Source: Bdellovibrio sp.
Lineage (GTDB): Bacteria > Bdellovibrionota > Bdellovibrionia > Bdellovibrionales > Bdellovibrionaceae
Assembly: GCA_025359945.1 (NCBI GenBank)
Contig: JANYDD010000090.1
Location: 1 to 36,179, forward strand
Length of the DNA: 36,179 nt
Direction: 5' to 3'
Numbering within the stretch: the first letter of the stretch is position 1; the number at the start of each line of letters is the position of its first letter. The notes beneath the pieces are model-generated. The model did not search any database. It worked only from the letters and a program-made list of their open reading frames with translations, and was not told the DNA's origin. The translations under genes and the position numbers were made by a program. Of this stretch, positions 9,540 through 24,607 are shown in pieces.

Positions 9540-9826
9540 CAGAAATTCCCTTATTGAGCGAATGCGAACTCACCGCATCGCTAGCCAGCGATCCTGTTTC
9601 ACGGCGTGGATTCTAAATATCGCTTCGGTTGTGCCGGCTATTCTTTTGACAAAGACAACTTAACCCCGCTTAACCCACCTATGCACATGACGCCAGCAAA
9701 TTCGCCTTGTCGAATATTGTCGACTTGAATGCGCTCCAGTCGAACACGACAGGTAGGTGGCGTCATGTGCATACGTAAGCCGCTTAAGCTACTCTTGAGT
9801 TTTACTTGAGAGCAATTGAATTGGAC
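9540..9826. other. Intergenic region carrying the first mobile-element copy
   Basis: About 290 bases between the divergent channel gene and permease remnant. Its main content is the 106-bp element at 9674-9779 and its flanking 8-bp duplications. A TTGACA on the plus strand at 9646-9651 could be a -35 box whose -10 region was separated by the insertion, but no clear -10 is seen. Confidence 0.45.
9674..9779 (-). mobile_element. 106-bp MITE-like element, copy 1
   Basis: This is a 106-base element with terminal inverted repeats of about 21 bases (18 of 21 match, inner core TATGCACATGACGCC). It is flanked on both sides by the identical octamer CCGCTTAA at 9666-9673 and 9780-9787. The reverse complement matches the copy at 24226-24331 at 105 of 106 positions. 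An internal GTCGA...TCGAC inverted repeat can also pair. It is too short to encode a transposase, so it is presumably mobilised in trans by an unseen insertion sequence that makes 8-bp target duplications. It sits 47 bases before the permease start. Confidence 0.88.
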
Positions 9827-23609: not shown

Positions 23610-24607
23610 ATGTTGCATCCTGAAACCCTTCGCCCTGAAGATATTTTAAGGCACGAATTTAAGATTCGCGTGAGTCGCAATCCGCGCTATTCTTTGCGCA
23701 GTTTTTAAACTATAAGCGACCAATCACGGCTAAAGCAGCGGTAAAAATTTCGAACAGTCTTGGGCTTGATCCAAAATTCCATCGCCAGTTTTTAAGTGCC
23801 GTTTTAGCGACCCAAAAAAAAGAATCAAGCCCTTCTTCAAATACAACGCAGGGTTTATCCGATGAAGATTTATACCTTTTGCATCACGAAGAATTTGAAC
23901 TGATCAGTGATCCGCTTCATTTTTACTTCTTAAGTTTGATTGAAACTGAAGATTTTGTTTTTGAAATGAAATGGATCGCCAAACGATTGGGCGTTTCTGT
24001 CATTGAGGCTCAGCAAATTGTCGAGCGTCTTAAAAAAATAAAACTGATCGAAGTCAGCAAAGATGGTCAGGTTTTCCGAAAGGTTCCGCACTGGCGAACA
24101 TCGGATGGAGTTCAAAATCTAGCTTTGCGAAAAGCCCACCGGACGCAATTGCAAACCACTTTGGATCAATTTGAACAAATCAATCTAGAACTTCGAGATT
24201 TAAGTTCGATGGTTATGGCGATTGACTTACGTATGCACATGACGCCACCTACCTGTCGTGTTCGACTGGAGCGCATTCAAGTCGACAATATTCGACAAGG
24301 CGAATTTGCTGGCGTCATGTGCATAGGTAGGGCGATTGATCTTAAAAAACTTCCCCAAGCCAAAGAGAAAATTAAACGCTTTCGTCGTGAGCTTTGTAAA
24401 TATTTAGAGTCCGGCAAAAAACAAGAGGTGTATTCGCTTTGTATTCAACTGATACCCCGAAGTCTTCCTTCAAAATCAAAAAAAAATGAAATGGATCCAA
24501 GGTTTTTTAGTATTGTCTGTTTTTTGCATTCTCCCCTTTGCCCATGGAGGCGGTGGGTATGGAAACGGCGGCTTTGTCATTCTGAAAGCTTCGACAAACT
24601 CCATTGA
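23610..24607 (+). pseudogene. TIGR02147-family regulator, broken by a frameshifting deletion and a MITE insertion
   Basis: From the ATG at 23610 the frame reads MLHPETLRPEDILRHEF, then VSRNPRYSLRSF, the usual TIGR02147 N-terminus, and stops at a TAA near 23706. Similarity resumes in another frame with QFLNYKRPITAKAAVKIS, then NSLGLD, the end of the helix-turn-helix domain, and continues with the family C-terminal domain to LCIQLIPRSL. About 12 codons between the halves seem deleted, with a frameshift. Near residue SSMVMAID a 106-bp element plus 8-bp duplication adds 38 codons before AIDLKKLPQAK resumes. The open frame after 23879 starts only at a weak TTG and lacks most of the DNA-binding domain. 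Its tail runs past the expected end into the next gene. Confidence 0.75.
24226..24331 (+). mobile_element. 106-bp MITE-like element, copy 2, inside a coding region
   Basis: Same element as at 9674-9779 in opposite orientation, differing at one base near the end. It is flanked by the identical octamer GCGATTGA at 24218-24225 and 24332-24339. Its terminal inverted repeats match at 19 of 21 positions. The frame used by the host gene is open through the whole element and begins with ATG-CAC-ATG after two codons. Element plus duplication is 114 bases, a multiple of three. Confidence 0.9.

What the first reader, a model, noticed from the sequence alone, without database searches (positions are those of the whole stretch)
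24218..24339. MITE insertion inside a gene adds exactly 38 in-frame codons
Element plus 8-bp duplication is 114 bases. The frame used is open across the entire element, so the host open frame continues into its conserved C-terminus (AID duplicated at both ends). This resembles the Rickettsia palindromic elements that live inside proteins. A 106-bp length plus 8-bp duplication always preserves frame, and the element has one fully open and two almost fully open frames, which may make it tolerable inside genes.
Basis: partly seen in the sequence, partly recalled or inferred. Interest (0 to 1): 0.85.

Follow-up and report, generated by a model that had tools for sequence, protein, structure and literature searches.

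The report
Mobile DNA inside a dead gene
A 106-base mobile element present in about 46 near-identical copies has jumped into the remains of a regulator gene without shifting its reading frame, but most of its insertions in other genes break them, so there is no sign that the element is adapted to live inside proteins.

Summary
A 106-bp element (24226-24331) with about 22-bp inverted ends and an exact 8-bp duplication (GCGATTGA) interrupts a TIGR02147-family reading frame; the 114 added bases read as 38 sense codons and the family's C-terminus follows. It is one of about 46 copies (full-length ones mostly 96-100% identical), 35 with perfect 8-bp duplications. Its ends match an IS1595-family insertion sequence whose fragments lie in the same genome, so it is best read as an IS1595-type MITE.

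Of 15 insertions inside clear ORFs, 5 read through and 10 stop or shift the frame; 3.2 open ones are expected by chance (P = 0.19). One open frame in 106 bases is ordinary, substitutions among copies show no constraint on the peptide, and copies are strongly depleted from genes. The host gene is already broken upstream: 14 residues of its helix-turn-helix are missing with a change of frame, so this read-through is probably without consequence.

Two other copies (C61:49726, C58:13534) sit in frame in ORFs with relatives on both sides and are better candidates for a tolerated insert. Overall: a new member of a known kind, of low interest.

The parts
24226..24331 (+). MITE, 106 bp, IS1595-type, one of about 46 copies in the genome
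24226..24247 (+). left terminal inverted repeat (CTTACGTATGCACATGACGCCA)
24310..24331 (-). right terminal inverted repeat (inward CCTACCTATGCACATGACGCCA)
24218..24225 (+). target-site duplication GCGATTGA, left copy
24332..24339 (+). target-site duplication GCGATTGA, right copy
23610..23704 (+). N-terminal remnant of the host TIGR02147-family gene, in a different frame from the body and ending at a stop
23705..24487 (+). body of the host TIGR02147-family frame interrupted by the MITE; lacks 14 HTH residues present in 11 relatives; runs on past the family's usual C-terminus to a stop at 24607
9674..9779 (-). second copy of the MITE in the window, between ORFs, with 8-bp duplication

Best explanation
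It is a non-autonomous IS1595-type MITE that was mobilised recently by an IS1595-family transposase. It inserts with an 8-bp duplication at sites of varied sequence and in either orientation. Shown: the copies, their ends, their duplications, and IS1595 fragments with near-matching ends in the same genome. Inferred: that this transposase moves the MITE. The 114-base in-frame gain at 24218-24339 follows from the element's length (106 + 8, divisible by 3) and from landing in the one of six reading positions that is open. It persists here because the host TIGR02147-family gene is a decaying pseudogene (shown: HTH deletion with frame change; inferred: loss of function), not because the peptide is tolerated or useful.
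For: About 46 copies, 35 with perfect 8-bp duplications. Right end 20/23 identical to the own-genome IS1595 ends and 21/23 to a complete IS1595 element in G073, whose transposase hits NF033547 and PF12762/PF12760; C-terminal pieces of that transposase at 94% identity lie at three contig ends of this genome. In a scan of 141 genomes of the order, the MITE and this IS end occur together in the same two genomes only. IS1595 members usually have 8-bp duplications (PMC8101967). 5 of 15 intragenic copies open against 3.17 expected, P = 0.19. Genic share 15 of 37 against about 85% ORF coverage of the window. Host gene missing 14 HTH residues with frame change against 11 relatives.
Against: No complete IS1595 copy is assembled in this genome, only ends at contig breaks, and the MITE ends differ from those IS ends at 3 of 23 positions, so the exact parent is not identified. 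The genome is a 106-contig draft, so a sequence error in the host gene's N-terminus is not excluded, though loss of about 14 codons against 11 intact relatives would be an unusual error. Whether the gene decayed before or after the insertion is unknown.
Confidence: 0.82

Rival explanations
1. The element is adapted to live inside proteins, like Rickettsia palindromic elements: length and open frame are selected so that insertions stay tolerable, and the 38-residue insert is expressed in working proteins.
For: Net insertion is a multiple of 3 in nearly all copies; forward frame 2 is open in most copies; two in-frame insertions lie in ORFs with relatives aligning on both sides (C61:49726 and C58:13534).
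Against: 10 of 15 intragenic copies stop or shift the frame; no excess of open ones (P = 0.19); shuffles with fixed ends have at least one open frame in 55% of cases; no synonymous bias in the frame; copies depleted from genes; host gene of this finding broken.
Confidence: 0.06
2. The junction is an assembly artefact: a repeat joined to an unrelated ORF.
For: The genome is fragmented at MITE and IS copies; the copy at the end of C26 lacks a duplication and its left flank (AAGGATTG) matches the right flank of the copy on C57, which suggests a chimeric join there.
Against: At 24226 both flanks carry the identical 8-bp duplication and both arms of the ORF align with the same protein family.
Confidence: 0.03
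3. The insert is translated and the truncated TIGR02147 protein, without its HTH, keeps some function with a 38-residue loop.
For: The frame is open from the TTG at 23879 to 24607 and the left arm has a positive coding score.
Against: No start codon in the body frame before 23879, HTH residues missing, insertion falls in the conserved MAID stretch just before the LPxAK..F motif, frame runs past the family's normal end, right-arm codon score negative.
Confidence: 0.07

Closest known systems
IS1595-family insertion sequences and MITEs derived from insertion sequences
   Same: 8-bp target duplications, ends 20-21 of 23 identical to IS1595 elements of this and a related genome, IS1595 transposase pieces in the same genome
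   Different: No transposase, 106 bp; interior not similar to the IS interior seen here; exact parent not found
Rickettsia palindromic elements (RPE)
   Same: Small palindromic repeat, found inside ORFs, open in one frame, some in-frame fusions
   Different: Intragenic copies mostly break the frame; no conserved peptide; perfect 8-bp duplications and IS1595-like ends. RPEs are reported inserted in ORFs with fusions in nearly half of copies in R. conorii and 11 of 12 in other species (PMC10969869)
QMITE1/QMITE2 of Coxiella burnetii
   Same: About 50 copies each, some in frame inside ORFs of unknown function, one family a target for another IS (PMC5896051)
   Different: Unrelated origin, longer (150-400 bp), different duplications

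Membership tests
MITE | short, no transposase, terminal inverted repeats | tested here: met
   106 bp, 22-bp ends with 20 of 22 matching, no room for a transposase
MITE | multiple copies with target-site duplications | tested here: met
   about 46 copies, 35 perfect 8-bp duplications
IS1595-family derivative | 8-bp target-site duplication | tested here: met
   family rule from PMC8101967
IS1595-family derivative | ends shared with an IS1595 element | tested here: met
   20-21 of 23 positions
IS1595-family derivative | mobilised by an IS1595 transposase | not testable with these tools
   only co-occurrence in two genomes
Rickettsia palindromic elements | intragenic copies predominantly in frame | tested here: not met
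   5 of 15 open, chance level
Rickettsia palindromic elements | conserved encoded peptide | tested here: not met
   14 nonsynonymous and 3 synonymous of 17 changes
TIGR02147 protein family (host gene) | complete N-terminal HTH followed by the family's C-terminal part | tested here: not met
   score 48.1 against cut-off 50; 14 HTH residues missing with frame change

The most novel reading that the evidence does not exclude
Insertions of this MITE in the open frame survive in working genes more often than insertions in closed frames, as the copies at C61:49726 and C58:13534 may show, making it a further, independent case of a mobile element that spreads inside bacterial proteins.
Probability: 0.08. 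Interest if true: 0.6.

Novelty: new member of a known kind. Interest (0 to 1): 0.2.

Why it matters
It shows that an eye-catching in-frame mobile-element insertion can be explained by element length and one-in-six frame odds plus a dead host gene. The useful by-product is a young, high-copy IS1595-type MITE in an uncultured Bdellovibrio-like bacterium, with two in-frame insertions in apparently intact genes that could be tested.

Tried and rejected
Plasmid and viral collections: no match to the MITE. The genus holds only this genome, so no allele without the insertion could be compared. A Pfam PF12762 search of the own genome found only one partial IS1595 domain; the other IS1595 pieces came from a protein search. 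A solved-structure search of the host frame gave no meaningful hit. The cut-off of 150 aa for 'genic' is my choice; the copies at C85:3713 (at a start codon), C96:78913 (upstream of a start), C62:5197, C63 and C74:259 were left out as ambiguous. Counting C85:3713 as open would give 6 of 16, which is still not a strong excess.

Full report
Observation. The element at 24226-24331 is 106 bp, has 22-bp inverted ends (20 of 22 positions matching) and is flanked by GCGATTGA on both sides. Forward frame 2 is open throughout; forward frame 1 and reverse frame 1 stop at base 103 only. The reading frame of a TIGR02147-family protein (48.1 bits, just under the cut-off of 50) continues through it, and the residues after it align with 11 relatives, which have no insert there.

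What it is. A genome search found 40 scored copies and 45 copies of the core; one further half copy appears. Full-length copies are mostly 96-100% identical; 35 have a perfect 8-bp duplication, which marks recent transposition and makes a misjoin at this locus unlikely. Copies lie in both orientations. The ends match the ends of an IS1595 element: a complete one in relative G073 (291-aa transposase, NF033547, PF12762 and PF12760) and fragments at contig ends C20, C34, C47 and C69 of this genome, at 20-21 of 23 positions. The same MITE occurs twice in one other genome of the order, a MAG labelled Pseudobdellovibrionaceae, each copy with its own 8-bp duplication, and that genome also holds the IS1595 end. 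At the one of these two sites that was checked, the flank is found in the window's genome only as short, distant matches, the best 78% identical over 233 bases; a misbinned contig in that MAG is not excluded. IS1595 elements usually make 8-bp duplications (PMC8101967).

Test of the interpretation. For each copy the flanks were joined in a script to give the empty site, and ORFs across it were examined. Fifteen copies lie inside ORFs of at least 150 aa. Five are read through: this finding, C61:49726, C18:21550, C61:53480 and C58:13534. Ten end in a stop or a frameshift, including an IS3-type transposase (C35), an NDH-2-type oxidoreductase (C69:50306, with a 113-base insertion) and an AAA_14/DUF4143 protein (C18:4147). 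From each copy's own open frames 3.17 read-throughs are expected; five or more has P = 0.19. Having one open frame of six is ordinary: 72% of full shuffles and 55% of shuffles with the ends held fixed have at least one. Seventeen distinct substitutions among copies give 14 nonsynonymous and 3 synonymous changes in the open frame, close to the random ratio of 231 to 74. Genic copies are 15 of 37, while ORFs of 100 aa or more cover about 85% of the window, so insertions in genes appear to be mostly lost, open frame or not; a transposition preference for intergenic DNA would look the same.

The host gene. The N-terminus of the TIGR02147 gene is at 23610-23704 in another frame and ends in a stop; the body resumes in the next frame. 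Against 11 relatives, 14 residues covering the helix-turn-helix are missing. The body frame has no start codon before the TTG at 23879 and runs past the family's usual end into the next gene. The insertion falls in the conserved MAID stretch just before the LPxAK..F motif. I infer that this is a pseudogene and that the in-frame insertion is not maintained by function.

Better cases. C61:49726 (306 aa without the insert) has relatives in G008 that align on both sides of the insertion, and C58:13534 (544 aa) has a paralogue at C33 that aligns up to and straight after it. As RNA the element folds into a very stable hairpin (-51.1 kcal/mol, z = -7.2), which could itself disturb expression of any gene that carries it (inference).

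Comparison with the known. In-frame intragenic MITEs are already documented, most strikingly the Rickettsia palindromic elements, and also QMITEs of Coxiella and ERIC elements (PMC10969869; PMC5896051). This element works like an ordinary IS-derived MITE and fails the two RPE features that could be tested here, so it is filed as a new member of a known kind.

Noticed in passing
L041 73-178, L043 73-178, L044 113-218, L015 65-170, L038 near 144-249: Several MITE copies are cut at a TA dinucleotide (bases 25-26 in three copies, 3-4 in one, and one further site) by the end of another insertion sequence; the TA target suggests an IS630-type element that uses the MITE as a landing site. Family not verified.
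   Followed up: partly
L009 1481-1626 and L041 (reverse complement) 179-190: The MITE copy at the right end of C26 lacks a duplication and its left flank AAGGATTG matches the right flank of the C57 copy, which points to a chimeric assembly join through the repeat.
   Followed up: partly
L034 around 1501-1606: The MITE at C85:3713 lies at a probable start codon: the duplication CAGATGAA contains the ATG, so the gene may now be translated from the downstream copy with AGGTAGG of the element just before it.
   Followed up: no
L038 741-846: One copy (C13:741) has its two end sequences exchanged relative to the core (CCTACC on the left, CGTAAG on the right), as if the core had been inverted between the inverted ends.
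   Followed up: no
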